Program-made: the position numbers and the translations under genes
Notes under the pieces: model-generated
Database searches by the model: none
What the model was told of the DNA's origin: nothing
What the model saw: only the letters and a program-made list of their open reading frames with translations
In this document: positions 4,770 through 38,864 of the stretch, piece after piece
Layout of the letters: the number at the start of each line of letters is the position of its first letter
Numbering within the stretch: position 1 is the stretch's first letter
From: Marchantia polymorpha subsp. ruderalis
Taxonomy: Eukaryota > Streptophyta > Marchantiopsida > Marchantiales > Marchantiaceae
Direction of reading: 5' to 3'
Length of the DNA: 64,000 nt
Assembly (NCBI GenBank): GCA_037833965.1
Contig: AP031359.1
Location: 4,026,001-4,090,000 of the forward strand

Positions 4770-5720
4770 TCATAACATGTGAAGATCAAGTCATTTACCC
4801 TCCGTATTGCATCGAGGACAAATCCATGGTCGAGTGGAACAACATCGATAGGTGGAGTCAGACACGACATGAGTCATCCTCTAGACCACCTATCACACAC
4901 CAACATATTGGCCGCCCGATTAGTTGACCCACATAACATGCACCTCAAGCCGGCACGTACAATCGCCAAGCTTGGATCCATAGTACCATCCACGTTTGGG
5001 AGGTGGCATGGCGCACAGTTGCAAGTTTGGATCTCGACCGTACAATAGAAAATATGGTGAGAATGAAGCCAAAGATGCTTGACAAGTGAATTGGTATCCC
5101 ATGGCCAGCCATGGTACCTGAATATCCCAGTCTCTAAGATGCCCCTTCTATAGGCCATACTTGCGCAACGTTCTCTTCACCGTCTGTACAACACGTTCAG
5201 CCAAACCATCCGCCTCTAGATGACCTCAAGACTTGGTCCGGTGATCAATCAACATCTTGTCTCATAATCTAAAACTCACCCTGAAACTCTGTCCCTTGAT
5301 CGGTCAACACCTAAGTTGGTGCACCAAAGTGACTAAGCACACTGTCAAGGAAAGCATACGCTACTCCCTCACTCGCCTTGTCAGGTAATGCCACCAACTC
5401 AATTCACTTGGAGAAATGCTCCACCATCACCAACACATATCAATGATGTCGTACAGTCAAAGGTAGTTTTCCAGCAAAGTCCAAAGTCTAAACTCCAACG
5501 ATGACCCAATCCCATGATAGATAAGGGATGTAACTCTGGTGTCGGGACATTGAACAATGCCATCACTCGATCATAATCCATGCAACGTGATACAAACTGC
5601 TGTACCTGCGTATGCATACCACGCCACCAATACTGATCAAGGAGTAAGCTGTATGTACGTTTCACTCCAAAATGTCCCAACTCCTCATGAGCATGCCTCA
5701 CAATGCACGCTCTCTGAGCT
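4770..5720 (-). pseudogene. Integrase with C-terminal PHD finger, copy A
   Basis: The N-terminal HHCC zinc domain is recognisable near 5700 (HAHEELGHFGVKRTYSLL, then a pair reduced to C-x2-Y). The core is fragmented. Relative to copy B about 390 bases are missing between the YGRDP motif and the NVDGTMD linker near 5010-5030. The PHD finger follows: CMLC and VCDRW at 4890-4943, and, after a frameshift, WICPRC at 4807-4827. The last pair is the canonical W-x-C-P-x-C, which shows that the ancestral domain had a complete final zinc pair. A stop replaces the Trp next to the zinc-binding His, and that His is itself changed. It cannot encode a functional protein. Confidence 0.75.
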
Positions 5721-5989
5721 AGATACGGTACTACTCGTACCCTACCGTCCTTTCACACTCGGAGAACATGTGATCCCTCCAATCAGTATCTCTTCGCTTG
5801 TTAGAGAACACGATCTCGCTCCTTGGCATCCACAATGTCCGACACCAACTGATTTGTAGGAACGTCAACATCAACGCATCAACGTGAACATCACGCTAAT
5901 CTATACTACCATCCTCAACCTCAGAATCTGAAGATTGACTATCCACTCTTTGACTAGAGTAAGATGTCAAGTGGTTCTCCTTGTTAGAG

Positions 5990-7590
5990 GCTCCACGTTA
6001 CCAACACATGAAGGCAGATGCATGCCAATTGGGCATCATCTCCTCATCAACCTCACCATGCCATCTAGCTCCAATGTCATCCTCTTGGCTAGTGCATGGG
6101 TTCCGACTGAAACCATTGGCCTCCAGGTTTGCAACTCCAGGTCTATACACCACCTGAAAGTTGTACTCCTGTAAGATGAGAGCCCATTGTGCAAGCTTCA
6201 CAATGAGCTTGTTGGACTCCATCAACCACTTAAGCGGCTGATGATCAGTAACAAGGGTAAACTGCGTAACACTTGAAGTGTGCCACATCTCACACCGCTG
6301 CCAAACACTCTCTGCCAACACACCTCCCTCAACGAACTATACCTCAACTCCGCAACATTGTTTGAAGGATTAGCATACGCAATCACAAACTCCTTACCCT
6401 CATCATCACGCTGTGTCAACATCGCTTCAAGTTCCAACATACTCCAATCAATGTGTAACTGGTATGAACGACCTCTGATAGGTCTCCTCAAGATGGGAGT
6501 GGCCACCAACCTGGCCTTGAGCTCAAAAAAAACCCTCTGCTGTTCATCTTCCCATTGCTACTCTTGATTTGACTTCAGCAACTGGTTTAAAGGCTTGGCT
6601 ATAGCACTGAACCCCTTCACATACCTCTGGTAATAGTTCGCCAAAACCATGATTTCACGAACTCTACTCACATCTGTCGGACAAGGATTGCATGCAATAG
6701 CCTCCACCTTTGCTTGTTGAACTCCCAAACCACCTGGCTAGATCACATGACCCAAGTACTCAATCTTCCCATGGAAGAACTTACACTTTCTAGGATGTAA
6801 TCGCAAACCATAAGCCCTCAACCGCTCAAGCACAATCTGCAAATGCAACCGCTCAAGCACAATCTGCAAATGTATCTGATGTTGCTCCACCGTGTTGCTA
6901 AACACCAAGATATCATCAATGTAACATCTGACAAAATCCAGCCCCACTAAGATCCTATCCATAACTCTCTGGAACTTGGTAGGAGCATTCTTCAACCCAA
7001 AGGATAAGAATCGCCACTCATACAAGCAATCCTTGCCTTGAGAGTTGACGCTCCAAAACGCTGTCTTGGCCTTGTCCTACTTCCAAATTGGCAACTGATA
7101 GTATTCTGCCCAAAAAACCAAAGTACCAAAAATCCTCACATGTCCCATCACATTAAAGATCTCCTCAAGTGTAGGCATGGCATAATTATCAAACTTCGTC
7201 TGCCGATTGATAGGACGGTAGTCTCCACACATCCGTCTATTTGTGTAGTTGCCATGTACATCCTCCTTCACCGACATGACTGTGCCTGACGCATACTCAT
7301 CATGCGACAATTCTACTAACCCAGCCTCAACGTCCGACTCCGAATCAAGTTCCTTTCCATATCACTATATTGATAGGGACGACGAAAGATTGGCGTATCA
7401 CTAGTCAACTCTATTAGTATGCCGAGTCCAATCAACTCATCCAGCTCCTTCATATTGAAGGCAAAACAACTCCTATAGTCTCGTAGGAATTGTGTCAACC
7501 GTCGCCTCTCCTCTCATGTGATATGGGAACCAATCAATGGCTCCAAGTGCTCCTTTATAGACACACTAGAGGGAGGGAATACTGTCAATG
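5990..7590 (-). pseudogene. Reverse transcriptase and RNase H, copy A
   Basis: The RT fingers and palm are seen at 7500-6738: RRMCGDYRPINRQTKFDNYA, FGLKNAPTKFQRVMDRIL and the catalytic RCYIDDILVFS (YIDD intact). The thumb is followed by RNase H pieces near 6510-6000 (TDHQPLKWLMES and RPGVANLEANGFSRNP). The ancestral polyprotein frame is interrupted by stops (for example in HIT-stop-EERRR near 7510) and frameshifts. A 27-base tandem duplication at 6819-6872 repeats the LHLQIVLER segment in the thumb. Confidence 0.8.
6819..6872. repeat. 27-bp tandem duplication inside RT, copy A
   Basis: Two adjacent identical 27-base units start at 6819 and 6846. They duplicate nine residues in the RT thumb. 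Copy B has one unit at the same place. The duplication is in frame and is probably a replication slip specific to this copy. Confidence 0.85.
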
Positions 7591-7597
7591 ATTGCTA
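7589..7597 (-). promoter_or_regulatory. Candidate stop-readthrough site UAG CAA UCA, copy A
   Basis: On the minus strand the codons at the DNMT-RT junction are TAG CAA TCA in the polyprotein frame. This fits UAG-CAR-YYA, the established context for tobamovirus-type leaky termination. Copy B has TAG CAA CCA at the same position. Flanking codons differ between the copies, but the stop and the six bases after it keep the consensus. Confidence 0.5.
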
Positions 7598-8875
7598 CGC
7601 CACATCCTTCAAAGAAGGGTTCTTCGTACCCTCCTTCGTAGCCACCTCCACATGAAAAACATCTCCAACTGCATGGGCTGAAACTCTAGCAGTCCTCTCG
7701 TCACGTCCCATGAACTTCAAGGATGACAAATATCTTGCCTGTCGTTCCCAGCCATTGCCACCACCATCCCAGTAGGCAATGAGCTAACAAGTGGTGTAGC
7801 AAACACCAAATGAACGCGTTGACGGCGTTGCACGGCCAAACCCAAGCTCACAATCCACGTCAGGCAGTTCATGTGCATACCCTAACTCTAAACGCGACAA
7901 TGGAACGCCTCTGAAATTGAAGAAGCTGCAGTCACACCAGTCATAAATTTCATTGCACGCTCTTTCTTATCACTATTGGGCTCCACCAATTGATGTACTG
8001 TAGAATCCTAGAGTATCCAAGGTCCACCATCACGATATGCATGTGATGTCGGATAACTAACCAATGTAGGTAAAGCCATCCGAGGCTGACCTACGCAATT
8101 CACCAACGCCATAAATGACCTGTCAATAACTCTCATCATTTGAGAATATCAAGAAAAATAAAAATATCCAAGATCATGTCAACGGTGAGTGTAGGATCAC
8201 GATGCACAAAATCATAAGCATGACGCAATATTTCTTGTGGCAAAAGGTTGGTCCACCATAACTGTGCACAATGAGCACGTGATCCAACCTTTGCAGCATC
8301 CAACAATAAGGTTGATCCAATCTATGCTCTGACCTCATGGATACTCGTCATCAATTGGTGTCGAGTGTCACCCAACAATGGCACATTCTCTAGAATGTAT
8401 GTTGGAGAATGTGTCTGCTGCACTTGGAGATGATGTAACATTTGCAACATCTTCCAAAACATCCGAGATCTAGGGTCATGCAACCTTGCTCCATGACTAG
8501 CACGTGTGACCCCCTAACATGGCCATCCCGCAATCACCAAATTAATATGACCAACTCGATTGAGGTCTGGCGCCCCCAACAATGAAATGTCTGAAGGCAA
8601 CGCCTTCTGGTATCCTCAAACAGCTGATCGTGACAACAATGAAGGAAAACGCTGCATCAATTGTGCAATATGTCATGAAGAAACTCGACGTGCAGTCTCA
8701 TCCTTTTCCACATACAAGTATCTCCGTACAAGAATACCTAACTGCAACACTACAGCCAAACCTATGTTGATCTCACCAAAAAGATCCAACAAACAAACAC
8801 CCTTTAGGGAATACGCCCATACAATTGGAGTAGTAACCAAGGGGGATAGGACCACAAACTCGCCGATCATCTAAA
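7598..8875 (-). pseudogene. Retrotransposon-borne C5-DNMT, copy A
   Basis: Readable pieces are motif I (VCLLDLFGEINIGLAVV, 8780-8830), the segment YLYVEKDETARRVSS, motif IV near 8518-8530 reading WPC-stop, and the motif IX/X region near 7905-7960 (MKFMTGVTAAS). The codon after the catalytic Cys is TAG where copy B has CAG. An in-frame TGA at 8616-8618 is shared with copy B. Here the N-terminal part stays in one frame, which shows that the motif I frameshift in copy B is private. The domain sits between protease and RT. It is inactive as it stands. Confidence 0.8.
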
Positions 8876-11770
8876 GCCTTCTCTGCCTCTGTTGGTAAAG
8901 AGGCCTCACTCCAAGCCTTCTTCACCAACCTATCAGCCTCTTGCTGTAATGCATGGCAAAAACTCTAGAATGGAACATCCAAAGATGAAGACACCGCCAA
9001 TGCGAAGCTCACAATCTCCTCCACATCCTCATAGACTTGGGTGTCGTTGGTTGACATGTTTCCCTCCAACAAGTCATCAACCCATGTAAGCAATCCGCTA
9101 AAACCCGCAACGGATGCCAAGACTGCAAGACAAGATCCAAGAGGTCGAGCTCTTGAATTAAATCTCACATGCATCTTGCTCATACGTCCATTGCCGGACT
9201 GCCAAATATGACGATAGGCAATGATCTCTGTCCAATAATCCATTCAAAATATAACATCTAACACGGCTCCATTAACAAGCATATCATATGACTCTGCTGA
9301 TGTAACCATCGCACGAACTTCAAACTATGAGCAATCTTGAGCATGATCATGCCTCAACTGCATTGTCTCATAAAGTAAAACCGGTAGGTTTTACTTTATG
9401 AGACAATGGCCAACAAGTGATGTGTGAATCTAGAATGGCCAACAATTCAAATCGGGCCTCCAAACTTCCAAACTAATGCAGGTTGTCTTGCCCAACATCA
9501 AGGGCTATGCACCAGAATAAAGCAAAAATTTGGCTGGTACATACACATGTTTGGTAGAACTCACCAAGCAAAGTAAACCACTCCGGTTGTCCATCATACA
9601 CACACTAGGGACAATCCTTTCACAATCAATGGCTGATCGGGCTGGTAAGAACTCCATCCTTGCCGCTCCGCCTGCCAAGTCGACTCATCACTCAATGTAG
9701 TCGTGAAGGATTGCTCCTCAGCAGAAGCCTCTCATATCCCGGCACTCGTAGCAATGATCCTCCCACGTTCACACAACATGGCTGCTAAACAAAATACACT
9801 GGCCAAGTCAATCCTAGAATCTATCAGCTTCGTAGCTGAAAATAGTGGAGATCTCATCACTTAAGTAGCCATTCGCATCACTGCACTAGATGGTGTGTCC
9901 GTATCCACAACATGTGACGTAGATGTCTCAATTCTTCCAAAGGATCTCTAGGTGGTGAAGGTCTCATGGATGAAGTCCTACTCACCTCAGACAACAAAAA
10001 CGACTGGGAAAGTCAAGCCTGTCGTTCATCCTCACCCCGCGTGGCTTTGAAGCGCGAGCACCACCTCTAGTCACTACAACTAATGCCTTCATTTGTGCTG
10101 CTCTCTCCAAATAGGAGAAATCTTCTACCTTGTAAGATGTGGAAGTGCTCGCCCCAATACTTGCCATAGTAGCAAGCCTCTACTCCAACTGCTCAATTTG
10201 AGCAGCCATAGACCTCTTTGTGGCTGAAGTAGCACTCGCTGCGGTGCGTTCAATTGCATTGACACCTCTATCACCTCTAGCACCACGGCCACCTCGGCCT
10301 TGTGGAGCATCATCGCCACGACCTCTACCACCAGATGTCAACTCTGGATGGAGGTCAAAGCACCGATCTTGAGGATGACCTGCTTGATCACAATTGTCAC
10401 ACAACCTGTGATGACTGAGGTCTAGCATGTGAACTCCATCCTCTGACCTCCTGGATACAATCCCTCCGCAGATGATCACCTTCACATGTCCAACATGCTG
10501 GTCCCTGCTGTTGACTAGCAAATGACGGCCTTGGTGCACGTGTCCTTGTCTCTCTAGGAGCTGACTAATGTTGTGTCTCCGCTCCACGACCCCCACTACT
10601 ACTAACATCAATGGGTCAGGACTGTGTTGTGCTCTACGGGACACAAGAGGTAGTGGTTGTATCTCTAACGAATGAAGATGTCACCACTCTCTTCTCCACT
10701 ATGTTAAGCTCAATCTTTTTAGAAAGAGCAAACACATAGACTAATGTGGGTGACGAATCGCTCAAGAGAGTAGCATCACGAACTCTCTGCCGCAACTCTT
10801 TGTCCAGAATCTTGTTCCAATATTGAACAACCTATGCCTCAGTCACACCGTGAGTAACTGAGATAAAAAATTGCATACGAGTGTATGCCTCCCGAAGACT
10901 CTCACCAGTCTTTCGCTCAAACTCTTGGAGACTGCTCAACTTCTCCGTCTTCATCCCTTGATAGTTCTTCCTCAACCTCTCGAAGAACTCAGGAATGGAG
11001 CTAAGCAAAGGTACGCCACTAACAGTTTCACTCATGCTGCCACTAGCAATGCCAACAAGACCGCTGCTGCACCAACTGCTCCACTAGTACCCTCGATGAT
11101 GCTACCACTCGCAGCTCCACTAGTACCAACACCACCCTGGGTAATAGACATGTAGTTTAGAGACCAATAACGCCTCTATGCGTCAATCTCCACAACATAC
11201 TCTCTCCCAAACTCGTGATAGTCATCCATGAGAGGCCCCTCAAGATGCTGAAACAACTCCTTTCATGCAAAGAAAGATGTAAACAACGTGGGGTTACACA
11301 AAAACTGCATATCACATCACGTATCAAACTCCTGAATGAAATCATCCAATTCAATGGTGCTCACAACATTAGAGTACCGCCGCGGGCCCTTCATGGCCCC
11401 GTACATCCCGTCCATGTCCTAAATCAACAAGTTTGGAACACTAGACAATATCACCACAGAAGATTTGATATCTGCAACACCTTGCTCCTCCGCAACATCT
11501 GATGAGATAGGTAGAGATAGCTTATATCTCAATCCATTCCGCGTAAATCTCCCACGGTCCTCGACTAGACCATCAAACTGCTCCGTGACGATCAAATCAT
11601 CAACAGGCACCATTGCCAAATCTCCACCTGACCCTGTTCCCGCACCAACCTACTCTAGCCCTACTAGCTATGGATATGTGCAACCTAACCTGTCATCACC
11701 GCAAGAAGAATCTCACGGTCCATCCATCTTTGTTTCTCTCACTCCAATCTCACCGTGAGAGAAACAAAGA
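8876..11770 (-). pseudogene. Gag, CCHC knuckles and protease, copy A
   Basis: Gag pieces include the block LSSIPEFFERLRKNYQGM and a nearby stretch on QEFERKTGESLREAYTRMQF (10832-11035). The second CCHC knuckle, CDNCDQAGHPQDRC, lies at about 10355-10400, followed by an RG-rich basic tail. The protease region at about 9.5-9.2 kb is badly broken: the LDSG loop is not readable, and a perfect 22-base inverted repeat replaces part of it. The segment that links protease to DNMT reads YWTEIIAYRHIWQSGNGRMS at 9165-9243. Many stops and indels are present. Confidence 0.75.
9361..9408. repeat. Perfect 22-bp inverted repeat with 4-base loop
   Basis: The left arm 9361-9382 and right arm 9387-9408 are exact reverse complements, separated by GGTA. 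The homologous region of copy B has no palindrome, so the hairpin arose in copy A after divergence. Template switching during DNA synthesis is the simplest origin. Confidence 0.95.
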
Positions 11771-28165: not shown

Positions 28166-28610
28166 AAATTCAGAGTGAATACAGAGGCCCAAAGCTCTTT
28201 CCTTGGAGGGCTTTTTTCTCAATTGTTTTGTCTCGGCTATCATCCTGTGTCTATCATGCATGTTCATGAAATTGTGAGTGAGTGTCACCGTGCATGATGC
28301 GCTCTAGTTTGTCGAAGCTACCGCATCTGAAGTTGCAAGTGTTCGATTCGGATGTTCCGAGTGTGTCTAGGGCTATTCAAGATTTAAGCAAGTTTGACTT
28401 TGGCTATTCGGGGCAGTAGGCTGAGAATGAGCAATGCTTGGAAGTTTGTCCCCCTGAATTTTGAGTGTAGAGCCGAGTGCGATTCCTGTAGGCTTTGATG
28501 GACAAATTTCAAGTTGTGTGTGTGATTACACTCTGCTCTTCAAACCTTCAGCTGTAATTGAGCAGTGTCTTTTGGAAGTGACATGTGCTTGAGAAGTAAA
28601 ACTCCTAAAT
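28166..28610 (+). mobile_element. Family 2 LTR 3' part (plus), left of the Family 1 insertion
   Basis: It carries the AATAAA-like/CCAAAGC hairpin region (28174-28215), then the untranslated LTR part up to GTAAAACTCCTAAAT at 28610, where Family 1 copy B begins. The LTR resumes after the insertion at 38861 (AAATAGAATATAAAC...) and ends at 38968, followed by primer site and gag of the same element. The intact homologous site is seen at 49626-49968. AAAT is present on both sides of the insertion. Confidence 0.8.
28607..28610. repeat. Target-site duplication AAAT, left
   Basis: AAAT precedes the TGTC terminus at 28611 and is repeated at 38861-38864 after the GACA terminus. Joining the flanks restores the Family 2 LTR sequence seen uninterrupted at 49.85 kb. 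Confidence 0.65.
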
Positions 28611-28722
28611 TGTCGTGCGACTCAATATCGCCATACATCATACATCGCTGACATGCTCTACTCACAACTCACACATACATACACAAGGAACGAGAGTGTC
28701 CACACACAAAGGTATCACAACT
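28611..28722 (-). repeat. Terminal repeat b2, copy B
   Basis: It is 112 bases, TGTCGTGCGACT...GGTATCACAACT. It differs from b1 (28979-29090) at about five positions, all transitions. It forms the outer 3' end of the element. Confidence 0.85.
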
Positions 28723-28726
28723 AAAA

Positions 28727-28976
28727 TGTCGAAACACAAATACACAAAGAGTCAAGCCAAACTCACTACTCTTAGGTAGACTACAAGTCAAAGCTAAGGG
28801 GAAAAACCCCGACGCGTAAGGCTCAACTCGAAGAACTGACAGTTCTTCGAGCTAGCCTTGAATATAACCCACGGTCGACGACCTCAACGTGCATGGCGTC
28901 CCAACCTGTATCTACCCTCAAACTCAAATATAACGTGTCTACACTCAAATCCACACTAACGTCTCGAGCCATGACA
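28727..28976 (-). repeat. Terminal repeat a2 (LTR-like), copy B
   Basis: It is 250 bases with TGTC...GACA ends and about 97 percent identical by eye to a1 (38594-38860), which has an extra 16-17 base tandem duplication of CGTCCCAACGTGTACC. It contains a perfect 12+1+12 palindrome at 28827-28851. It lies between b1 and b2. Confidence 0.85.
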
Positions 28977-28978
28977 TT

Positions 28979-29090
28979 TGTCGTGCGACTTAGTATCGCC
29001 ATACATCATACATCGCTAACATGCTCTACTCACAACTCACACATACATACACAAGGAACAAGAGTGTTCACACACAAAGGTATCACAACT
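28979..29090 (-). repeat. Terminal repeat b1, copy B
   Basis: This is the inner copy of the 112-base repeat, directly after the purine tract on the minus strand. The equivalent repeat in copy A (4520-4632) is the very end of that element. Confidence 0.85.
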
Positions 29091-29103: not shown

Positions 29104-29248
29104 GGCGGTCAGGTCCCTCTGACTCCCAGGTAGCCCTATCTACAACTACATGCTATGCACCTTCGTGGGTGCGCGAACCAGTAGGCCGGGTGCTATGTCG
29201 CCCCATCGTTAGTTGCATATCTGCAATTCATAACATATGAAGATCAAG

Positions 29249-30112
29249 TCATCTACCCTCTGAAGTACATCGAGGATAAACCCACCGTCCAGTAGGAACA
29301 ACATCAATAGGTGGAGTCAAGCACGACATGTGCCATCCCCTAGAACACCTATCACACACCAACATATGGGCCGCCTGATCAGTTGACCCACATAACATGC
29401 ACCTCAAGCCGGCACGTACAATCGCCAAGCTTAGGTCCATAGTACCATCCACGTTTGGGAGGTGGCATGGCGCAGAGTTGCGCACATGATCCTTCCAAAC
29501 GACACCGTCACGACCCTCCAACATGAGAACTCCAGGAGGTAACACCTCTTGCACTCGCAAGGTAGTGCGTCCTACCGTCACATCCAACGTAGTCGGTGCA
29601 GTCTGCTGTAGATAGACGTAATCTTCCACGCAGAACCTACGAATTGATGGTCGATAACCTCCTCCTCGAATAGTTGCAGACCGCAACGTATCCCGGTGCT
29701 GAGCAATCGCAAGGTTCTCAAACGCTGCAGGCATAACTCTCCGAAAGAGCACTGCACGTTGAGAACACACTCTCATCCACATATCTAGATCATCAAGGTT
29801 CACCACCTCGCTAGACTCACGACGAATCGCTGCAGGCAAGTCTGGATCTCGGCCGTACAATAGAAAATATGGTGAAAACGAAGCCAAGGATGCTTGACGA
29901 CTGAATCGATATCCCATGGCCAACCATGGTAACTGAATATCCCAGTCCCCAAGATGCCCCTTCTGTAGGCCATACTTGCGCAACGCTCTCTTCACCGTCT
30001 GTACCATCCGCTCAGCCAAACCATCCGCCTCTGGATGATTTCGGGAAGTAGTCTGGTGATCAATCAGCGTCTTGTCACACAAGACCTGAAACTCACCCTG
30101 AAACTCTGTCCC
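29249..30112 (-). CDS. Integrase core end, C-terminal domain and PHD finger (pol C-terminus)
   Basis: Open after the TAG at 30113-30115. It continues the catalytic core (GTEFQGEFQVLCDKT; catalytic Glu in HPEADGLAERMV) and the C-terminal integrase domain (FCVEDYVYLQQ ... GVVWKDHVRN). After a short linker the last 49 residues form a PHD-type zinc finger: CMLC, CDRC, WHMSC, then RWVYPRC, i.e. Cx2C-x11-Cx2C-x4-H-x2-C-x14-[Y]x2C. The seventh ligand is Tyr here but Cys in copy A. PHD fingers bind histone H3 tails, so this module could steer integration as chromodomains do in other gypsy elements; that role is an inference. It ends with TGA at 29249. Confidence 0.85.
   Translation of the reverse strand, partial: GTEFQGEFQVLCDKTLIDHQTTSRNHPEADGLAERMVQTVKRALRKYGLQKGHLGDWDIQLPWLAMGYRFSRQASLASFSPYFLLYGRDPDLPAAIRRESSEVVNLDDLDMWMRVCSQRAVLFRRVMPAAFENLAIAQHRDTLRSATIRGGGYRPSIRRFCVEDYVYLQQTAPTTLDVTVGRTTLRVQEVLPPGVLMLEGRDGVVWKDHVRNSAPCHLPNVDGTMDLSLAIVRAGLRCMLCGSTDQAAHMLVCDRCSRGWHMSCLTPPIDVVPTGRWVYPRCTSEGR
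29264..29398 (-). other. PHD finger domain at integrase C-terminus
   Basis: C4HC3 spacing is typical of PHD fingers, including the Trp two residues before the final Cys pair and the SRGWHMSCLTPP core. One Cys is replaced by Tyr (TGT/TGC to TAT, a G-to-A change). Copy A keeps WICPRC, so the loss is private. Confidence 0.8.
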
Positions 30113-31573
30113 CTAATCGGTCAACACCTCAGCTGGTGCACCAAAGTGACTAAGCACCCTGTCAAGGAAAACATATGCTACTCCCTCACTCGCCTTGTCA
30201 GGTAATGCCACCAACTCAATCCACTTGGAGAAATGCTCCACCATCACCAACACATACCGATGATGTCGTGCAGTCAAAGGTAGTGATCCAGCAAAGTCCA
30301 AACTCCAACGGTAACCCAATCCCATGATAGATAAGGAATGTAACTCTGGTGTCGGGGCATTGAACGATGCCCTCACTCGATCACAAATCATGCAACGTGA
30401 TACCAACTGCTGTACCTGCGTATGCATACCACGCCACCAATACTGACCGAGGAGTAAGCTGTACGTACGCTTCACTCCAAAATGTCCCAACTCCTCATGA
30501 GCATGCCTCACAATGCGTGCTCTCTTAGTTGGATGCGGTACTACTCGTACCCTACCGTCCTCCCACACTCGGAGAACATGTGCTCCCTCCAATCGGTATC
30601 TCTTCGCCCTCTGGAGAACACGATCTCGCTCCTTGGCACCCACTGTGCCTGGCACCATACTGGTCCGTAGGAACTCCAACACCAACGCATCATCGTGAAC
30701 ATCACGCTGGTCCACACCACCATCCTCAACCTCAAGATCCGAAGACTGACTATCTACTCTCTGACTAGAGTAAGACGTCAAGTGGTCCTCACTACTAGAG
30801 GCTCCACGTAACCAACACATGAAGGCCGATGCATGCCAACCGGGCACCATCTCCTCATCAACCTCACCATGCCACCTAGCTCCAGTGTCATCCTCCTGGC
30901 TAGTGCATGGGTTCCGACTCAAACCGTCGGCATCCAGGTTCGCAACTCCAGGCCTATGCACCACCTGAAAGTCGTACTCCTGTAAGATGAGAGCCCACCG
31001 TGCAAGCTTCCCTGTGAGCTTGTCAGACTCCATCAACCACTTGAGCGGTTGATGATCGGTAACAAGGATAAACTGCGTACCAAACAAGTAACATCTGAAG
31101 TGTGCCACAGCCCACACCGCTGCCAAACAGTCTCCCTCGTACGAACTATACCGCGACTGTGCTGCATTATTCGAACGACTAGCGTACGCAATCACAAACT
31201 CCTTGCCCTCATCATCACACTGTGTCAACACCGCTCCAAGTCTCAACATACTCCAATCAGTGTGCAACTGGTATGGTCGACCTCTGATAGGTCTCCTCAA
31301 GATGGGAGCGGCCACCAACCTGGCCTTGAGCTCAACAAGAGCTCTCTCCTGCTCATCTCCCCATTGCCACTCCTTATCCGACTTCAGCAACTGGTTCAAA
31401 GGCTTTGCTTTAGCACTGAATCCCTTCACATATCTCCGGTAATAGTTTGCCAAACCCATGAACGCACGAACTCTACTCACATCCGCTGGACGAGAAATGC
31501 ACGCAATAGCCTCCACCTTTGCCTGCTGAACTCCCAAACCACCTGGGTAGATCACATGACCCAAGTACTCCAC
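30113..31573 (-). CDS. RT thumb, RNase H and integrase N-terminal part (pol)
   Basis: The 486-residue open stretch begins just after an in-frame TAG at 31577. It covers the RT connection (VEYLGHVIYPGGLGVQQAKV; FMGLANYYRRYVKGFS) and RNase H with its acidic residues (LHTDWSMLRLGAVLTQ, YEGDCLAAVWAV, LVTDHQPLKWL, VANLDADGLSR). The integrase HHCC zinc domain follows (HAHEELGHF...CMICDRV), with the first two core Asp residues (RWSLDFAG; EVLTD). The TAG at 30113 stands where copy A has CAA, between LTD and GTEFQ, so it is a point lesion. Enzymes: RNA degradation in the hybrid, and DDE-type strand transfer. Confidence 0.9.
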   Translation of the reverse strand: MEYLGHVIYPGGLGVQQAKVEAIACISRPADVSRVRAFMGLANYYRRYVKGFSAKAKPLNQLLKSDKEWQWGDEQERALVELKARLVAAPILRRPIRGRPYQLHTDWSMLRLGAVLTQCDDEGKEFVIAYASRSNNAAQSRYSSYEGDCLAAVWAVAHFRCYLFGTQFILVTDHQPLKWLMESDKLTGKLARWALILQEYDFQVVHRPGVANLDADGLSRNPCTSQEDDTGARWHGEVDEEMVPGWHASAFMCWLRGASSSEDHLTSYSSQRVDSQSSDLEVEDGGVDQRDVHDDALVLEFLRTSMVPGTVGAKERDRVLQRAKRYRLEGAHVLRVWEDGRVRVVPHPTKRARIVRHAHEELGHFGVKRTYSLLLGQYWWRGMHTQVQQLVSRCMICDRVRASFNAPTPELHSLSIMGLGYRWSLDFAGSLPLTARHHRYVLVMVEHFSKWIELVALPDKASEGVAYVFLDRVLSHFGAPAEVLTD

Positions 31574-31579
31574 CTTCTC

Positions 31580-32386
31580 CTAGAAGAACCTACACTTCCC
31601 AGGATGTAACCGCAGACCATGAGCCCTCAACCGCTCAAGCACAATCTGCAAATGTATCTGGTGTTGCTCCACCGTGTCGCTAAACACCAAGATATCATCA
31701 ATGTAACATCTGACAAAATCTAGCCCCGCTAGAATCCTGTCCATCACTCTCTGGAACTCGGCAGGTGCATTCTTCAACCCAAAGGGTAAGAATCGCCACT
31801 GATACAAACAATCCTTGCCGTGGGAGTTGACACCCCAAAACGCTGTCTTGGCCTTGTCCTCCTCCCGAATCGGCAACTGATGGTATCTCGCCCGAAGATC
31901 CAAAGTACTAAAAATCCTCGCATGTCCCACCACATCGAAGATCTCCTCAGGTGTAGGCATGGCATACTTATCGGCCTTCGTCTGCCGATTGATAGGACGG
32001 TAATCTCCACACATCCGCCTATTCGTGTAGTTGCCATGTACATCCTTCTTCGCTGGCATAACAGTGGCTGAAGCATACTCACCATGCGACAACTCCACTA
32101 ACCCAGCCTCCAATAACTCCAACGTCCGACTCTGAATCAAGTCCCTTTCCATATCACTATATCGATAGGGACGACGGAAGATTGGCGTATCACTAGCCAA
32201 CTCTATCCGTATGCCAGGTCCAATCAAAGTACCCAACTCCTTCATACTGAAGGCAAAACAACTCCTATAGTCACGTAGGAATTGTATCAACCGTCGCCTC
32301 TCTCCTCCGGTGATCTGAGAACCAATCAATGGCTCCCACTCCTCCTCCATGGACCCACAAGAGGGAGGCGATACTGTCACTGGTTG
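31580..32386 (-). CDS. Reverse transcriptase (pol)
   Basis: It starts directly after the UAG at 32387 in the same frame and has no AUG until SCGSM, which fits expression by readthrough or by cleavage from a fusion. RT motifs are complete: RMCGDYRPINRQTKADKYAM, STLDLRARYHQLPI, FGLKNAPAEFQRVMDRIL and the catalytic RCYIDDILVFSD (both Asp present). It synthesises cDNA from the element's RNA. The stop at 31577 (TAG where copy A has a sense codon) truncates it in the thumb. The family is Ty3/gypsy. Confidence 0.92.
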   Translation of the reverse strand, partial: QPVTVSPPSCGSMEEEWEPLIGSQITGGERRRLIQFLRDYRSCFAFSMKELGTLIGPGIRIELASDTPIFRRPYRYSDMERDLIQSRTLELLEAGLVELSHGEYASATVMPAKKDVHGNYTNRRMCGDYRPINRQTKADKYAMPTPEEIFDVVGHARIFSTLDLRARYHQLPIREEDKAKTAFWGVNSHGKDCLYQWRFLPFGLKNAPAEFQRVMDRILAGLDFVRCYIDDILVFSDTVEQHQIHLQIVLERLRAHGLRLHPGKCRFF

Positions 32387-32389
32387 CTA
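32381..32389 (-). promoter_or_regulatory. Candidate stop-readthrough site UAG CAA CCA, copy B
   Basis: The only interruption between the DNMT frame and the RT frame is TAG (32387-32389), followed by CAA CCA. This matches the UAG-CAR-YYA rule for programmed readthrough. The upstream and downstream frames are identical. Copy A keeps the same arrangement at 7589-7597 with YYA = TCA. Confidence 0.6.
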
Positions 32390-33612
32390 TGACACCTCCT
32401 CCAAAGGAGGGTTCTCCGTGCCCTCCTTCGTAGCAACCTCCCCGTGACCAACATCTCCAACTGCATGAGCGTCTACTCTCGCAAGTCCTATCGTCACGTC
32501 CCATGAACTCCAAGGATGACGAATATCTTGCAAGTCGCCCCCAGCCATTGCCACTACCGTCCTGATAGGCAATGAGCTAATAAGTGGTTTAATAACCACC
32601 AAATCTGCGCGCAAACGGCGTTGCTCGGCCAAATCCAAGCTCACAATCCACGTCAAGCAGTTCAGGTCCATAGCCTGACCCAAAACCTGACGACGCGATG
32701 CCTCTGAAACTGAAGAAGCCGCGGTCACACCAGTAAGAAACCCCATCGCACGCTCTCTCTCATCAGCGTTGGGCTCCACTAACTGATGTAGGGTACTGTC
32801 CCACAGTAGTCCAGGTCCCCCATCACGATATGCATGTGATGCCGGATAACTAACCAACGTAGGCAAAGCCATCCGAGGCTGACCTACGTGGTTCATCAAT
32901 GCCATGGGTGACCTATCCGCCACTCTCACCACCTGAGAGTATCGAGAGACATCCAAGATCCTGTCAACGGTGAGGGTAGGATCACGATGCACAGAATCAT
33001 ACGCATGACGCAATATCTCTTGTGGTACAAGGTTGGTCCACCACAAACGTGCACGATGAGCACGTGAACCAACCCTTGCAGCATCCAACAACACTGCTGA
33101 TCCAATCCATGCCCTGACCTCATGGACACTCGCCATCAACTGGGCCCGAGTGTCACCCAACAATGGTACGTTCTCTAAAATGTATGCGGGAGAACGTGTC
33201 TGCTGCTCCTGGAGATGACGTAACACTCGTAGCATCTCCCAAAACATCCGAGATCTCGGGTCATGTAACCCTACTCCATGCCTAGCGCGTGTGTGCCCCT
33301 GACATGGCCATCCCGCAATCATCAAATCGATATGTCCAACTCGATCGAGGTCTGGCGCCTCCAGCAATGAAATGTCTGAAGGCAACGCCTTCTGGTATCC
33401 TCAAACAATTGATCGTGGCAACAACAAAGGAAAAACGTTGCATCAACTGTGTAACATGTTGTGAAGAAACCCGACGTGCAGTCTCGTCCTTCTCCACGTA
33501 CAAGTATCTACGTACAAGAATACCTGACTGCAACACTGCAGCCAAATCCGTGCTGATCCCTCCAAAAAGACCCAGCAAACAAACATCCTCTTGGAATACT
33601 CCCATACAATAG
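32390..33612 (-). pseudogene. DNA (cytosine-5) methyltransferase domain between protease and RT
   Basis: Motifs in order: I, CLLGLFGGISTDLAAVLQSG (about 33520-33580); SAM-pocket region YVEKDETARRVSS; IV, IDLMIAGWPCQGHTRA with catalytic Cys at 33302-33304; VI, YILENVP (about 33163-33180); VIII, DAARVGSRAHRARLWWTNL (about 33030-33090), very like the DNMT3/DRM arrangement; IX/X, ERAMGFLTGVTAAS and RRQVLGQAMDLNC (about 32660-32750). There is no room for a large target-recognition domain between VIII and IX. Lesions are a one-base loss near 33590, an extra T in a T-run at 33431-33435, and TGA at 33401-33403 (shared with copy A). It would add methyl groups to cytosine C5 in DNA. The RT frame follows after the UAG. 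Confidence 0.88.
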
Positions 33613-34915
33613 GTGTAGTAACTAATGGTGATAGGGTGCTAAGACCACATACTAGCCGACCACCTGAGACTCGCTTTGCCTCTGGTGGTAAAGAGGCCTC
33701 ACTCCAAGCCTTCTTCACCAACCTATCAGCCTCCTGCTGTAATGCGTGGCAAGAACCCCAAAGTGGAACATCCAAAGATGATGACACTGCCGCTGCGAGA
33801 CTCACCATCTCCTCCACCTCTTCATAGACTAGAGTATCCTCGGCTGACCTGTTCCCCTCCAACAAGTCATCAGGCCATGTGAGCACTCCACTGAAACCCG
33901 CAATAGAGGCTAAAACTGCAGGAGAAGATCCAAGAGGTCGATCTCGAGAAATGAACCTCACAGGCAGCTCACTCATACGTCCATCACCGAACTCCCAACC
34001 AGGGCAATAAGCTGCCGTCTCTGTCCAATAATCCATCCGAAATCCCATCGGATATAACACCGCTCCACCAACAAGCACATCATATGACTCTGCTGATGTC
34101 ACCACCGCTCAAATTCCAAACTGCGAGCTATCCTGAGCATGACCATGCCTCAACTGCACTGATATGCGCTCTCTGGTCATCCTGTACGACCTGTCGTTGG
34201 TGCCACCGAGTGATGTCTGAATCTGGAACGGACAAGGCTCCAACTCGGACCTCCGAACTCCCAAACTAATGCAGGCAATCTTGCCCAAAATCAAAGGCTG
34301 TGCACCAGAATCCAGCAACACTCTGGCTGGGACATACACCTGCCCTGTAGCACTCACTAAGCAAAATACACCGCTCCGGTTGTCCATCATACACACACCA
34401 GGGACAACCCTCTCTCGATCAATGGCTGGTCGGGCTGGCAAGGACTCCATCCGTGCCGCTGCCGCCTGCCATGTCGACTCATCGCTCGATGGAGTCGTAG
34501 AGGATAGCTCCTCACCAATAGTCTTGCCTATCTCGGCACTTGTAGCAGTGATACTCCCACGTTCACACAACGTGGCTGCTGCACGAAAAACCCGAGCCAA
34601 GTCAATCCCAGAGTCCATCAGCTCTGTAGCTGAAAATAGTGGAGATCTCATCACTGAGCTAGCCATCCGCGTCACTGCACTAGATGGTGTTTCCGTGTCC
34701 ATCACACGTGCCGTAGATGTCTTAGTTCTTCCACTAAGGTCACTAGGTGGTACAGGTCTCATGGATGAAGTACCGGCCACCTCTGACAACAAAAACGACT
34801 GGGGAAGTCTGGCCTGACGCCCACCCTCACCCCTCTGAGGATCCAACTCCCCTATCGCACCGCTTGGCTCTGGAGCTCGAGCTGCACCTCTAGTCACTGC
34901 AACCGATGCCTCCAC
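33613..34915 (-). pseudogene. Aspartic protease and linker to DNMT, copy B
   Basis: It continues the gag frame after TAG at 34916. A disordered Ser/Thr-rich stretch leads to the protease: VPARVLLDSGAQPLILGKIA (active-site Asp-Ser-Gly, about 34280-34345), and after a TGA at 34109 (CGA to TGA is the simplest change) the second half SAESYDVLVGGAVLYPMGF. A roughly 130-residue linker then leads into the DNMT without another recognisable domain (it contains PLGSSPAVLASIAGFSG and TTPIVWEYS). The protease would process the polyprotein in the particle. Its fusion to a methyltransferase instead of directly to RT is the unusual feature. Confidence 0.8.
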
Positions 34916-36436
34916 CTATGCTGCACTCGCTAGATAAGGGAAATCCTCTTCCTCGTAAGAGGTGGAAGTGCTCGTCCCAGAACTCACCATAGCAGCAAGC
35001 CTCTGCTCCAACTGCTCAATACAAGCAGCCATCGCGCTCTCTGTGGCCGAAGTAGCACTCGCTACAGGACGTCCAACTACACCGGCACCTCGATCACCTC
35101 TACGAGCACGGCCACCTCGACCTCGAGAAGCATCACCACCACGACCTCTACCACCATATGTCAACTCTGGATGAAGGTCAAAACACCGATCTCGAGTATG
35201 ACCTGCTCGACCACAGTGGTCACACACCACCTGTGATGACTGGGGTCTAGCCTGTGAACTCTGACCTCCGGCCTCCTGCGGACAATCTCTCCGCCGATGA
35301 TTCCCTCCACATGTCCAACATGCTGGTCCCTGCTGCTAGCCAGCAAAAGACGGCACTAGTGCACGTGCCCCTGTATCTCTAGCGGCTGTCTGGTGTCGTG
35401 TCTGCACTCCGCGACCCCCACCACTACCACCACCAAAGGGTCTAGACTGTGCCGTGCTCTGCGGGACACGAGAGGTAGTGGCTGCGTCTCTAGCAAATGA
35501 AGAAGTCACCACTCTCTCCTCCACTATGTTAAGCTCAATCTTCTCAGAAAGAGCAAACACATAGGCCAATGTCGGTGACGCATCGCTCAAGAGTGTAGCA
35601 TCTCGAACCCTCCGCCGTAGCTCTCTGTCCAGTATCCTGTACCAATACTGGACCGCCTGTGCCTCAGTTACACCGTGAGTAACTGAGATCAACCGCCGCA
35701 TACGCGTGTATGCCTCCCGAAGACTCTCATCAGTCTTCCGCTCAAACTCCTGGAGACTCCTCAACTTCTCCGTCCTCACTTCCTGATAGTTCTTCCTCAA
35801 CCTCTTGAAGAACTAAGGAATGGGGCTGAACAAAGGTACGCCAGTAGTCTCTCCACTCGTGCTGGCAACGCCAACAGCACCGCTGGTGGTTCCTGCTCCA
35901 CTAGTACCATCGGTGATGCTACCACTTGCACCTCCACTGGTACCAACACCACCTTGGGTGATCGACGTATAGTTTGGAGACCAATGACGCCTCCATGCGT
36001 CAATCTCCACAGCATACTCTCTCCCAAACTCATGGTAGTCATCCATGGGAGGCCCCTCCAGATGCTGAAACAACCACTTCCATGCAAAGAAGGGTGTAAA
36101 CAATGTGGGGTTACGCAAGAACTGCATATCGCACCACGTGTCAAACTCCTGGATGAAATCATCCAACTCAATGGTGCCCAATGCACCAGAGTACCGCCGT
36201 GGGCCCTCTATGGCCCCGTACATACCGTCCATGTCCCCAGTCCACGAGTGTGGGACCCTAGATGATATCACCACCAAAGATCCGCTATCTGCCACACCCC
36301 GCGCCTCTGCAACCACTGATGCGCTAGGATGAGGTAGCCGATACCTCAACCCACTCCGCGTAAATCCTCCACGGTCCTCAACGGAACCACCAAACTCCTC
36401 CGTGATGACTGACTCACCAACCGGCACCACCGCCAC
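34916..36436 (-). pseudogene. Gag with two CCHC zinc knuckles, copy B
   Basis: The 207-residue N-terminal part (36436-35813) holds the gag block IELDDFIQEFDTWCDMQF and FFAWKWLFQHLEG. After a TAG at 35813 (Lys or Glu codon in copies C and A) the conserved FFKRLRKNYQEVRTEKLRS and REAYTRMRRLISV region follows. TAG at 35336 is followed by two knuckles in the same frame, CWTCGGNHRRRDC and CDHCGRAGHTRDRC, and an RG-rich basic tail. TAG at 34916 is CAG in copy C. Gag packages the RNA. The start at 36436 is the first Met of the open frame. Confidence 0.85.
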
Positions 36437-38593
36437 AACTCCACCTGCCCTCGTTCCTGCACTAACCTGCTCTTGCCCTACTGACTATGGGTATGGACAA
36501 CCCAACCTGTCATCACCGCAAGAAGACTCTCATGGTCCACTGGTCATCACTCCAGTCTCACCATGAGAGAAACAAAGATAGGCGCCGGTGATCAAATCCA
36601 GCCGCACTATCGACAACACACTGGAGTAAAACTACTCCGGAAATCAACGTCAACCCAGACATGGACGCGCATCAAGAAGCCAGACTAGAGAGGATCCAAA
36701 CACAAGAAAAACGGCTAGCAACGACTCTCCAGCCAAAATGAAACACAGCACAGAACAACACAACACACGGGACATCGCATCGCATCGCGACCCCGAGTCA
36801 AACTCCATCGTCTCCTATCATCCTCCGCCTCTCGCGCTTGCAACGCTATCTCGCTCATCCCGTTGCAAAGATGATATCGACCCTTCCGCCTTCAACGCCT
36901 ACAATGTCACCTCTTCCACTAAGTCGCCAAGAGAGTCTCCACATCGAGGTGTCCAGTACTGCGGCTCACAACTCCACCTCATAACTCCACCTCCCACTGT
37001 CACTAGGGACAAAGAACATAAAGAAAGCCTATATACCTAACTGTTTCCCATAGGAAAAGTAATAACGATAAATTTTTTTTTTTTTTTTTTTCACAACTGA
37101 AAAATCATAATAATTGAGACCGAGTGCAAATCCTCAATCTCTCCAAAAAAATACTTTTTTTTTCCTTTTCTTTTCTTTTTCCTTTTTTTTCACAAATCAG
37201 AAGAAATAATAAGAGTGATTGAAAGGTAAACCACAAATGGCAGGGCAAAAGAGTTTGCGCTGAATCTGACCCTTACAACATATTCTTGGTATCTACTTAG
37301 ACTAAACGCCCCAATAATATAAGCAAAATAAGCTTCAGGTGACTAATATACTACAGATATTCCCAATCAACCAGATGTATATGATGCAGGATAGAGCAAA
37401 ACATGACCTTCTATTCTACGCTCAAATCTTCACCTTGCCAAAAGAACCTATACCCAGAGTTTTTTTTTTGAGCCGATAATTCGGTAGGTAGAATTCTGCG
37501 CTGGCACTTGGTCCTGTACCGCCCCGTCCAAGTCCACTGGTTTCAACAGCTGTGTACCTCGAACAAATTCCTCCTCCCCACTGTTCAAAGATCAAAGTAA
37601 ATCAGCGGAATCAGGTGGCGGGACTCAACACTTGGGCAATGCCGACCTCTCTATGCCACGCTCCACACTGCATCTAGTCCAATACCGTTCGTCGACTTAC
37701 TGTCGCCCCCGCATGACCCCTTAACACTCTACTATTCACGGTACAGATCCCCTTCGCACGCAGAAAAATTGCGTATTTGCAGACAAAACGATCTCCTACA
37801 GCTCAATTCTGAGCTCGCTCGACGTCGTCTCGTCAAGCTATCAAGTGCTCGAGCAACCCCGGGACACGAGACAGCTTGATGGACAACACCGAAGCAAATC
37901 CAAGCACAGACTCCGGTTTCCGCATAAAATACTCCTCATAACCAGCACACTCCTGCCGAGAATCCTCCTGCTTGTCACACTATAGAGCCAGCCGACGAAA
38001 CTACAGGAGACGACCTATATTTGCTCTGCAGCTTTGTGTTCTCTTGTGGGGAGGTGCGGCCCCTGAGCGCACAAATAGCGCGAGCTCATGTCGGATGACG
38101 ATGTTTTCGCGCGCAGCAAAGACGTGCACGGCAAGAACCACAACAGTGCAGTGCAGGTATGCAAATGCAATGTCGCGACAGCCCAATGACCACTATGGCC
38201 TAGATGCAATGTGTCCACACACGAACGCACGCGAGCTCGTTAGCAACTACGACAAGCTTCAACATCGATCCCCGGACACAACAACTTCATCAGTCGGATG
38301 TCTTGCGAAGTTCAAACAGGCAGAACTCCACATCTCTTTAGCTTCTGCACTTCTACATTCCTGCCTGCCTCGCCTAAAAATTACCATCACCTCGACGTCG
38401 TCTTCCTGCTGCCATCCAACGCTGCGATGAAAAACAAAAGGCCGATCGAGCCTTCGTCTTCCTCTTTGCCGTCCTGTACCTCGACCAGCGACGAGAATTC
38501 GCGCCAACTAACAAGAACTGAAAAAAAACACAAGAAAAAGAAACTGAACACAAACACACTACCAACTCAGTACTGTCAGTTCTTCGAGTAAAA
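36437..38593 (-). other. 5' leader of Family 1 copy B
   Basis: The first 560 bases upstream of gag are shared with copies A and C and include TATATA near 37030. Then come a T19 run (37073-37091) and a polypyrimidine tract (about 37145-37190), which are purine-rich on the element's RNA strand. The rest, to 38593, shows no ORF I trust. The stretch next to repeat a1 is CTCGAAGAACTGACAG on the minus strand (38588-38573), exactly complementary to part of the palindrome in repeat a. Confidence 0.6.
38573..38588 (-). promoter_or_regulatory. Candidate primer-binding site, self-complementary to the terminal repeat
   Basis: Five bases inside the end of repeat a1 the minus strand reads CTCGAAGAACTGACAG. 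The same repeat contains CTGTCAGTTCTTCGAG on that strand (within 38694-38718), an exact 16-base complement. A TATATT lies about 25-30 bases upstream of that point. This fits a Tf1/sushi-like self-priming scheme in which the RNA 5' end anneals to the leader. No match to a tRNA 3' end is obvious. This is a hypothesis. Confidence 0.4.
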
Positions 38594-38860
38594 TGTCGAA
38601 ACACAAATACACAAAGAGTCAAGCCAAACTCACTACTCGTAGGTAGACTAAAAGTCGAAGCTAAGGGGAAAAACCCTGACGCGTAAGGCTCAACTCGAAG
38701 AACTGACAGTTCTTCGAGCTAGCCTTGAATATAACCCACGATCGACGACCTCAACGTGCAGGGCGTCCCAACGTGTACCGCGTCCCAACGTGTATCTACC
38801 CTCAAACTCAAATATAACGTGTCTACACTCAAATCCACACTAACGTCTCGAGCCATGACA
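38594..38860 (-). repeat. Terminal repeat a1 (5' LTR-like), copy B
   Basis: It is 267 bases with TGTC...GACA ends, and homologous to a2 (28727-28976). The palindrome is at 38694-38718. TATA-like TTATATTC and TTATATTT occur on the minus strand (about 38728-38736 and 38812-38820). No 'b' repeat is attached to it. Confidence 0.85.
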
Positions 38861-38864
38861 AAAT
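38861..38864. repeat. Target-site duplication AAAT, right
   Basis: It is the partner of 28607-28610 and follows the right end of Family 1 copy B. Confidence 0.65.

What the first reader, a model, noticed from the sequence alone, without database searches (positions are those of the whole stretch)
32390..33612. C5 DNA methyltransferase built into a gypsy polyprotein between protease and RT
Seen: DNMT motifs I, IV (PCQ), VI (ENV), VIII and IX/X lie in one minus-strand block, with aspartic protease immediately upstream and RT immediately downstream. The same order recurs in a second diverged copy (7598-8875). Known: retrotransposon-borne DNMTs have been reported from charophytes and dinoflagellates (de Mendoza and colleagues, 2018). 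Motif VIII looks DNMT3/DRM-like while motif IV is PCQ rather than PCN. Inference: the element could methylate its own cDNA or new insertions, limiting damage or escaping other silencing.
Basis: partly seen in the sequence, partly recalled or inferred. Interest (0 to 1): 0.9.

Follow-up and report, generated by a model that had tools for sequence, protein, structure and literature searches.

The report
Methyltransferase-carrying Gypsy retrotransposon in a liverwort
A jumping gene in the genome of a liverwort carries its own DNA-methylating enzyme, which selection has kept intact and which is probably made together with its capsid protein, and relatives of it occur in a moss and in green algae.

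Summary
Window 28607-38864 (minus strand) is a decayed copy of a Ty3/Gypsy element carrying a DNMT3-type C5 methyltransferase between protease and reverse transcriptase. The host is, by assembly size and gene match, Marchantia polymorpha (female), and the window lies on its U chromosome (inference). The family is large and recently active (125 DNMT hits scored of 627 candidates), with uninterrupted copies. The DNMT is under purifying selection (dN/dS 0.16, against 0.67 for the stretch next to it in the same ORF). Two corrections: protease-DNMT and RT are not one ORF but are separated at 42 of 42 junctions read by an in-frame UAG, 41 of them followed by CARYYA, the tobamovirus leaky-stop motif; so the enzyme should be made with Gag, in excess over RT-integrase. 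The integrase ends in a PHD finger. The kind is known: KnitGypsy-Dnmt3 of Klebsormidium (2018), with the same split repeats. New here, as far as my searches show: a land-plant family, one DNMT clade shared by elements of liverworts, Klebsormidium and other green algae (an AU test rejects grouping the Klebsormidium DNMT with plant DNMT3), a second domain order, and the leaky stop. What the enzyme methylates is untested; self-methylation of new cDNA is my leading guess.

The parts
38861..38864 (-). 5' copy of the 4-bp target site duplication (ATTT)
38589..38860 (-). left terminal repeat A1, starts TGTCATG
   Evidence: 91.5% identical to A2; 4-bp TSD
36233..38588 (-). leader; begins CTCGAAGAACT, variable among copies upstream of about 600 bp before ORF1
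34838..36232 (-). ORF1: Gag (35279-36232) and CCHC zinc-knuckle region (34838-35278), broken by stops in this copy
33818..34477 (-). ORF1: aspartic protease (LLDSGAQ)
   Evidence: tblastn, 85% identity to an uninterrupted copy; no Pfam protease match was reported
32630..33590 (-). ORF1: DNMT3-type C5 methyltransferase domain, motifs I, IV (PCQ), VI (ENV), VIII, IX, X in conventional order; frameshift near 33432
32390..32629 (-). ORF1 C-terminal tail, nearly unconstrained (dN/dS about 0.7)
32381..32389 (-). UAG CAACCA: conserved in-frame stop with type I (CARYYA) readthrough motif between ORF1 and ORF2
30962..32386 (-). ORF2: reverse transcriptase (31367-32386) and RNase H (30962-31366)
   Evidence: PF00078 E 1.3e-28
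29435..30586 (-). ORF2: integrase (H2C2 and DDE core)
29261..29431 (-). ORF2: C-terminal PHD finger
   Evidence: PF00628 E 7.4e-9
28978..29090 (-). internal repeat B1
   Evidence: 95.6% to B2
28722..28976 (-). repeat A2
28611..28722 (-). right terminal repeat B2, ends ACGACA
28607..28610 (-). 3' copy of the 4-bp target site duplication (ATTT)
4835..11415 (-). second, older copy of the same family (Gag to PHD, several frameshifts); DNMT 7837-8804, UAG CAATCA at 7597

Best explanation
It is a Ty3/Gypsy LTR-type retrotransposon family that has kept a DNMT3-derived C5 methyltransferase as a working part of its replication machinery. Shown: anatomy A1 - leader - ORF1 (Gag, CCHC, protease, DNMT) - UAG CARYYA - ORF2 (RT, RNase H, DDE integrase, PHD finger) - B1 - A2 - B2, 4-bp target duplications, recent activity, purifying selection on the DNMT, conserved catalytic residues, kinship with other green-lineage elements. 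Inferred: most ribosomes stop at the UAG, so Gag-protease-DNMT is the abundant product and a minor readthrough product brings RT and integrase; the DNMT is therefore packed into the particle in Gag-like amounts and acts on the newly made double-stranded cDNA (or the fresh insertion) before or at integration, which the PHD-bearing integrase may steer to chromatin. Pre-methylated copies would enter quietly, sparing the host and so the element. Likelihoods: identity 0.95; enzyme activity is what selection keeps 0.85; readthrough 0.85; own cDNA or insertion as the main substrate 0.45.
For: Domains. Uninterrupted copies: 14 of 20 loci, chosen for long frames, have both ORFs open. DNMT dN/dS 0.16 (95% by resampling copies 0.13-0.22) at dS at least 0.1, against tail 0.67, RT 0.07, Gag 0.14, PR 0.12 (finer bins). 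Catalytic Cys in 32 of 33 and motif VI Glu in 33 of 33 element rows with a letter there, motif VIII Arg-x-Arg in 34 of 34. UAG at 42 of 42 junctions and CARYYA at 41 of 42; the two Y positions vary (CCA, TCA, CTA), changing the amino acid but not the motif. Split repeats and TSDs. One clade of element DNMTs, 100/100 support. SymbioDIRS-Dnmt3 domains methylated CGs de novo in yeast (PMC5890265), so element DNMTs can act on DNA.
Against: No activity, expression or methylation data here. The KnitGypsy-Dnmt3 domain, the nearest tested one, gave no methylation in yeast; the authors call that inconclusive since human DNMT3B also failed. A DNMT-less Gypsy family in the same genome also has many open copies (88 scored of 3983 candidates), so a DNMT is not needed for success. 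CG depletion is mild (0.71 in two copies against 0.87 in the whole window). One element row lacks the motif IV Cys (K_P0042) and seven of eight type II rows have ECQ for PCQ; in a wider, cruder motif scan ECQ was also seen in 2 of 6 type I rows that matched.
Confidence: 0.5

Rival explanations
1. The DNMT acts in trans on host DNA: it methylates host genes or competing elements, altering silencing in the element's favour.
For: Made in Gag-like amounts if the leaky stop is right; many copies (125 scored of 627 candidates). de Mendoza and colleagues raise host methylome effects.
Against: The enzyme sits in the Gag polyprotein, which assembles particles. Nuclear targeting was not examined; not tested here.
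Confidence: 0.2
2. The DNMT acts on RNA in the particle (genomic RNA, the primer, or RNA-DNA hybrid), as DNMT2-type enzymes act on tRNA.
For: Gag-linked position in a particle that carries RNA; substrate is not fixed by fold. No call supports it directly.
Against: Sequence kinship is with DNMT3, a DNA enzyme: with the window piece DNMT3A E 1.6e-7 against E 0.004 for the best DNMT2-type chain; with the uninterrupted domain no DNMT2-type chain within E 0.01.
Confidence: 0.12
3. The domain is kept as a DNA/RNA-binding or structural module, not for catalysis.
For: The proline of motif IV has changed to Glu in seven of eight type II rows.
Against: The Cys (32 of 33), Glu (33 of 33), Arg-x-Arg (34 of 34) and motif I F-x-G (31 of 31) are kept, more than binding alone asks.
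Confidence: 0.12
4. Chance capture without function.
For: None beyond the decayed state of the window copies.
Against: dN/dS 0.16 against 0.67 in the adjoining tail of the same ORF; DNMT present in full or in part in all 20 RT-anchored loci fetched and in relatives across green plants.
Confidence: 0.02
5. ORF2 is made from its own mRNA or an internal AUG, not by readthrough of the UAG.
For: An in-frame Met is the 13th codon after the stop, and database ORF2 proteins are drawn from such a Met (this reflects gene prediction).
Against: Same frame, a single stop, UAG at 42 of 42 and CARYYA at 41 of 42 loci read, including subfamilies with different flanks; one copy folds into a strong stem just downstream (z -3.65), three others more weakly (z -1.0, -1.7, -1.9).
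Confidence: 0.13
6. Liverwort, Klebsormidium and chlorophyte elements each took a DNMT from their host independently.
For: de Mendoza 2018 proposed an acquisition in the K. nitens lineage; the element clade sits on a long branch, where trees can err.
Against: 31 element DNMTs are one clade (100/100); Klebsormidium element DNMTs with plant DNMT3s as a clade is rejected, AU p 0.0002 on a 31-row set (tested after a first tree had been seen); RT and DNMT distances correlate, r 0.68 in 40 elements, 0 of 2000 permutations as high; same place between PR and RT.
Confidence: 0.06

Closest known systems
KnitGypsy-Dnmt3 of Klebsormidium nitens (de Mendoza et al. 2018, PMC5890265; first three of seven parts of the text read, and passages)
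   Same: Gypsy pol, DNMT3-class domain in the polyprotein, conventional motif order, DIRS-like repeats, conserved key residues, purifying selection. The K. nitens protein KFL_009030040 (P0047) has protease-DNMT-RT order and is a sequence relative in DNMT (42% over 70% of the query) and RT-INT (48%).
   Different: In P0047 DNMT and RT share one ORF; here a leaky-type UAG separates them. The words PHD, readthrough and Marchantia do not occur in that main text. Host is a land plant.
SymbioDIRS-Dnmt3 and SymbioLINE-Dnmt of Symbiodinium (same paper)
   Same: Retroelement-borne C5 methyltransferase under purifying selection
   Different: DIRS (tyrosine recombinase) or LINE backbones, described there as independent acquisitions
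Retrotransposon-embedded DNMT3s in a 2025 DNMT survey (PMC12344493, passages)
   Same: States that some DNMT3 members lie in retrotransposons, citing the 2018 work on streptophytes and dinoflagellates
   Different: Names LTR Copia and DIRS; no Gypsy, bryophyte element, leaky stop or PHD in the passages seen
MpDNMT3a/b, host DNMT3 genes of Marchantia (P0056, P0059)
   Same: Same enzyme class, PCQ and ENV motifs, conventional order
   Different: MpDNMT3b is split by an intron; both carry PF11926; a separate clade (100/98)
Type I stop-codon readthrough of tobamoviruses (PMC5382211, passages)
   Same: UAG followed by CARYYA before the polymerase part
   Different: Found here in a retrotransposon, after a methyltransferase; efficiency unmeasured

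Membership tests
KnitGypsy-Dnmt3-type elements | Ty3/Gypsy order RT-RNaseH-integrase with DDE integrase | tested here: met
   Pfam; domain map
KnitGypsy-Dnmt3-type elements | DNMT3-class domain between protease and RT, motifs not rearranged | tested here: met
KnitGypsy-Dnmt3-type elements | DIRS-like repeat arrangement A-coding-B-A-B | tested here: met
   3 of 4 extended copies plus the window copy; in L019 no A1 within 5.2 kb
KnitGypsy-Dnmt3-type elements | Sequence kinship of DNMT and RT with the K. nitens element | tested here: met
KnitGypsy-Dnmt3-type elements | DNMT in the same ORF as RT (Pol) | tested here: not met
   UAG between them at 42 of 42 junctions
Active C5 DNA methyltransferase (DNMT3) | Catalytic motifs I, IV Cys, VI Glu, VIII Arg-x-Arg, IX, X | tested here: met
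Active C5 DNA methyltransferase (DNMT3) | Methylates DNA | not testable with these tools
   needs an assay
DRM (rearranged) methyltransferases | Motifs VI-X before I-V | tested here: not met
   order I, IV, VI, VIII, IX, X
DIRS retrotransposons | Tyrosine recombinase, no target duplication | tested here: not met
   DDE integrase rve E 3.2e-13; 4-bp TSD in the 4 copies whose two ends I could place
Chromoviruses | Chromodomain at integrase C end | tested here: not met
   PHD finger found, no chromodomain match, in one uninterrupted copy
Type I readthrough signal | UAG + CARYYA | tested here: met
   41 of 42
Type I readthrough signal | Readthrough happens in cells | not testable with these tools
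   needs a reporter or ribosome profiling

The most novel reading that the evidence does not exclude
A methyltransferase was captured once, deep in the green lineage, by a Gypsy retrotransposon whose integrase bears a PHD finger, and has since been an obligate part of a wide retroelement clade (liverworts, mosses, Klebsormidium, Closterium, chlorophytes), moved once within the polyprotein from before RT to between RNase H and integrase, and in bryophytes came to be made with Gag through a virus-like leaky stop: a clade of retroelements that mark their own DNA before integration.
Probability: 0.35. Interest if true: 0.82.

Novelty: new variant of a known kind. Interest (0 to 1): 0.63.

Why it matters
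Why a transposon would carry the enzyme normally used to silence transposons is open. A recent, multi-copy, DNMT-bearing family in a genetically tractable land plant makes it testable, and the Gag-linked dosage gives a concrete prediction (the enzyme acts in the particle). [quoted passage not shown] this shows a large family in a land plant, though not in a tracheophyte. The single element clade would replace an acquisition in the K. nitens lineage by an older one.

Tried and rejected
Rejected: chance match; passenger without function; DRM kinship (motif order; a DRM chain scores E 1.1e-4 against 2.7e-10 for DNMT3A; that the chain 4onj is a DRM is recalled) and DNMT2 kinship; ordinary two-LTR structure (no direct repeat in 19 of 20 loci as first fetched; explained by split repeats; the one repeat seen, in L015, has another copy close by and was not followed); DIRS membership (TSDs, DDE integrase).

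Led nowhere: structure prediction never started (queue full), so there is no fold comparison. Two viral-contig scans found no relative, so I could not read the stop context in other species. The junction alignment is too conserved (92%) to test the downstream stem by covariation. A DNMT-less Gypsy family was found as a possible decay control, but its listed copies score almost alike, so it was not used. NCBIfam added nothing. Paper searches gave no description of a DNMT-bearing retrotransposon in a bryophyte among the listings and passages I saw; I did not open every listed paper, and most subscription papers and preprints are not held. The deposited Marchantia proteins are mostly named hypothetical by NCBI; UniRef names some after a methyltransferase or reverse transcriptase.

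Limits: score only the best candidates, so copy numbers are lower bounds and the RT-anchored sample covers close relatives only; one search also counts host genes. Of 119 RT hits, 97 had a listed DNMT hit within 2.6 kb upstream; of the other 22, I fetched 7 and all 7 had DNMT, 4 of them in part; 15 were not looked at. The first 20 loci were chosen for long frames. dN/dS pairs are not independent: much of the signal at dS over 0.1 is a contrast between two subfamilies. One search scored 8000 candidates and one search listed 120 of 723. The DNMT trees use a selection of the 175 proteins (67 rows); before the 63-row tree I dropped four of these: two odd element rows (P0053, P0055), the Cymbomonas row (P0051) and one unnamed row (P0149), all long-branched, with them in, the 34 element rows were also one clade (100). 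The AU test used 31 rows. Five proteins were left out before the distance test. The RT tree has one outgroup.

Full report
What is there. On the minus strand the window holds a decayed Ty3/Gypsy copy (28607-38864 with its target duplications). Read along its own strand it has a terminal repeat A1, a leader, Gag, a CCHC region, protease, a DNMT domain (32630-33590), a short tail, a UAG at 32389, RT, RNase H, integrase, a PHD finger and the repeats B1-A2-B2. The DNMT's best solved relatives are DNMT3A and DNMT3B.

Host. The assembly has nine contigs and 241,466,482 bases, and the contig of the window, C1, has 5,591,195. This is within 18 kb of the published Marchantia polymorpha Tak-2 assembly (nine sequences, 241,484,302 bp, chrU 5.6 Mb; PMC13078153, passages). 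The host DNMT3 gene on C6 matches MpDNMT3b, whose record names a contig of 31,446,154 bases, the length of C6. The window is therefore most likely on the female sex chromosome of Marchantia (inference).

The family. A PF00145 search gave 123 matches, host genes included, and a search with the element's DNMT gave 125 matches, 89-100% identical, scored out of 627 candidates. Of 20 loci chosen for long frames, 14 have an open ORF1 of 1355-1361 codons (stop to stop) and an open ORF2 of 1042. A1 and A2 are 99.3-100% identical in three copies and 91.5% in the window copy, so the family has moved recently and the window copy is older. Of 119 close RT hits, I fetched 20 that I did not hold yet: 15 carry the DNMT in full and 5 in part.

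Leaky stop. ORF1 and ORF2 share a frame and are parted by one stop. At 42 of 42 distinct junctions read (2 in the window, 40 elsewhere) it is UAG, and at 41 it is followed by CARYYA (L005 repeats L006 and is not counted). The exception, L045, reads CAACAA. The Y positions vary between copies (CCA, TCA, CTA). UAG CARYYA is the type I readthrough signal of tobamoviruses (PMC5382211, passages). Relatives in a liverwort (Calypogeia) and in unnamed metagenome records also end their first ORF soon after the DNMT, but their DNA could not be read. Inference: the DNMT is made at the level of Gag, RT and integrase at a lower level.

Selection. Pairwise dN/dS at dS of at least 0.1, with 95% limits from resampling copies: DNMT 0.16 (0.13-0.22), tail 0.67 (0.58-0.73), RT 0.07 (0.06-0.08), Gag 0.14 (0.13-0.15), protease 0.12 (0.06-0.15), PHD 0.21 (0.16-0.34). 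The tail, next to the DNMT in the same ORF, is the internal control. The pairs are not independent. In an alignment of element rows the motif IV Cys is kept in 32 of 33, the motif VI Glu in 33 of 33 and the motif VIII arginines in 34 of 34.

Relatives. A search with the DNMT region gave 55 proteins: Marchantia, Calypogeia fissa, Sphagnum fallax, Klebsormidium nitens, Cymbomonas, Monoraphidium and many metagenome proteins. A search with RT-integrase gave 723, 120 of them listed, among them Riccia, Closterium, Tetrabaena and, by record name, probably Tetraselmis; many have a PHD finger. Two domain orders exist. Type I is DNMT-RT-RH-INT(-PHD), with protease before the DNMT in those that reach so far; type II is RT-RH-DNMT-INT(-PHD). 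Among the 115 proteins new, 14 are type I, 24 are type II, and 77 show no DNMT in the predicted protein; many of these start just before RT, as ORF2 proteins would, but whether they have a DNMT in a first ORF was not seen. In the RT tree type II needs two changes of label (one is not ruled out by well-supported branches) and type I is scattered, as if ancestral. In the DNMT tree all 31 element rows are one clade (100/100) apart from plant host DNMT3 (100/98) and animals. Holding the Klebsormidium element DNMTs with plant host DNMT3s is rejected (AU p 0.0002). RT and DNMT distances correlate (r 0.68 over 40 elements, 0 of 2000 permutations as high; within type I 0.89, within type II 0.35). One origin of the element DNMT is the simplest reading; vertical descent against transfer between hosts is open.

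Ends. Three extended copies and the window copy begin TGTCATG, end ACGACA and are flanked by 4-bp duplications AAAG, TGTG, TGTC and ATTT. The repeats are split as in DIRS elements, which the 2018 paper also says of KnitGypsy-Dnmt3, although the enzyme is a DDE integrase. The inner B1-A2 joint is CA-two bases-TG, which resembles joined unprocessed ends (my inference).

How it may work. Shown: a conserved, selected methyltransferase in the Gag ORF of a recently mobile element. Inferred: it works in the particle on new cDNA or on the fresh insertion. SymbioDIRS DNMT3 domains act on CG in yeast; the K. nitens one showed no activity there, which its authors call inconclusive. Transitions in decayed copies are highest at CHG and CG sites, but transversions are raised there too and there is no control family, so this is weak. 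The rivals (host DNA, RNA, binding only) remain.

Novelty. The kind was reported in 2018, and a 2025 survey repeats it for LTR Copia and DIRS elements (PMC12344493, passages). What I did not find in print, in the paper searches listed under Tried and rejected, is the land-plant family, the wider clade with two domain orders, the leaky stop after the DNMT and the PHD-bearing integrase. I rate it a new variant of a known kind.

Noticed in passing
L012/L048, L016/L046, L025/L047, window 36233-38588: The leader between A1 and ORF1 is hypervariable (about 0.85 to 4.5 kb): many copies 96-99% identical near ORF1 become unrelated beyond a sharp point about 603 bp before the ATG; others share up to about 1.3-1.6 kb and then part. 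A 2-kb piece of the L012 leader is a patchwork matching different loci, one a 1-kb stretch at C9:14020550 with no family DNMT hit listed within 70 kb. It may capture or swap sequence.
   Followed up: partly
type II relatives such as P0043, P0049, P0051: Motif IV of seven of eight type II methyltransferase rows reads ECQ instead of PCQ; in a wider scan 13 ECQ, 3 PCQ and 1 QCQ among 17 type II rows that matched, 2 ECQ and 4 PCQ among 6 type I rows (17 rows unmatched). Odd for a C5 methyltransferase with the Cys kept.
   Followed up: partly
window 2540-2743 (+): Relic of a third, more diverged DNMT-bearing element (52-59% identity to liverwort-type domains, three stops) near the edge of an AT-rich stretch.
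   Followed up: partly
window 18367-19776 (-): Isolated Gag-CCHC piece of a related element; no protease, DNMT or pol match of this family between it and the copies at 11415 and 29261.
   Followed up: no
window 54818-57124 (-): Another Gypsy element (27-38% identity in INT, RT and RNase H), no DNMT of this family matched beside it; its family shows many open copies of nearly equal score in the genome.
   Followed up: partly
P0176 (Calypogeia) against L009: Element RT-RNaseH is 88% identical between Calypogeia and Marchantia, while a Calypogeia DNMT3 gene is 53% identical to MpDNMT3b; possible horizontal transfer, not tested.
   Followed up: no
window 38578-38588 and after A1 in L016, L025, L012: CTCGAAGAACT follows A1 in all four copies read, where a primer binding site would lie; it does not start with TGG and I did not identify a tRNA.
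   Followed up: no
L009-type against L022-type subfamilies: Pairs fall at dS 0.3-2 in RT but mostly 0.1-0.3 in DNMT, as if subfamilies were mosaics joined by recombination.
   Followed up: no
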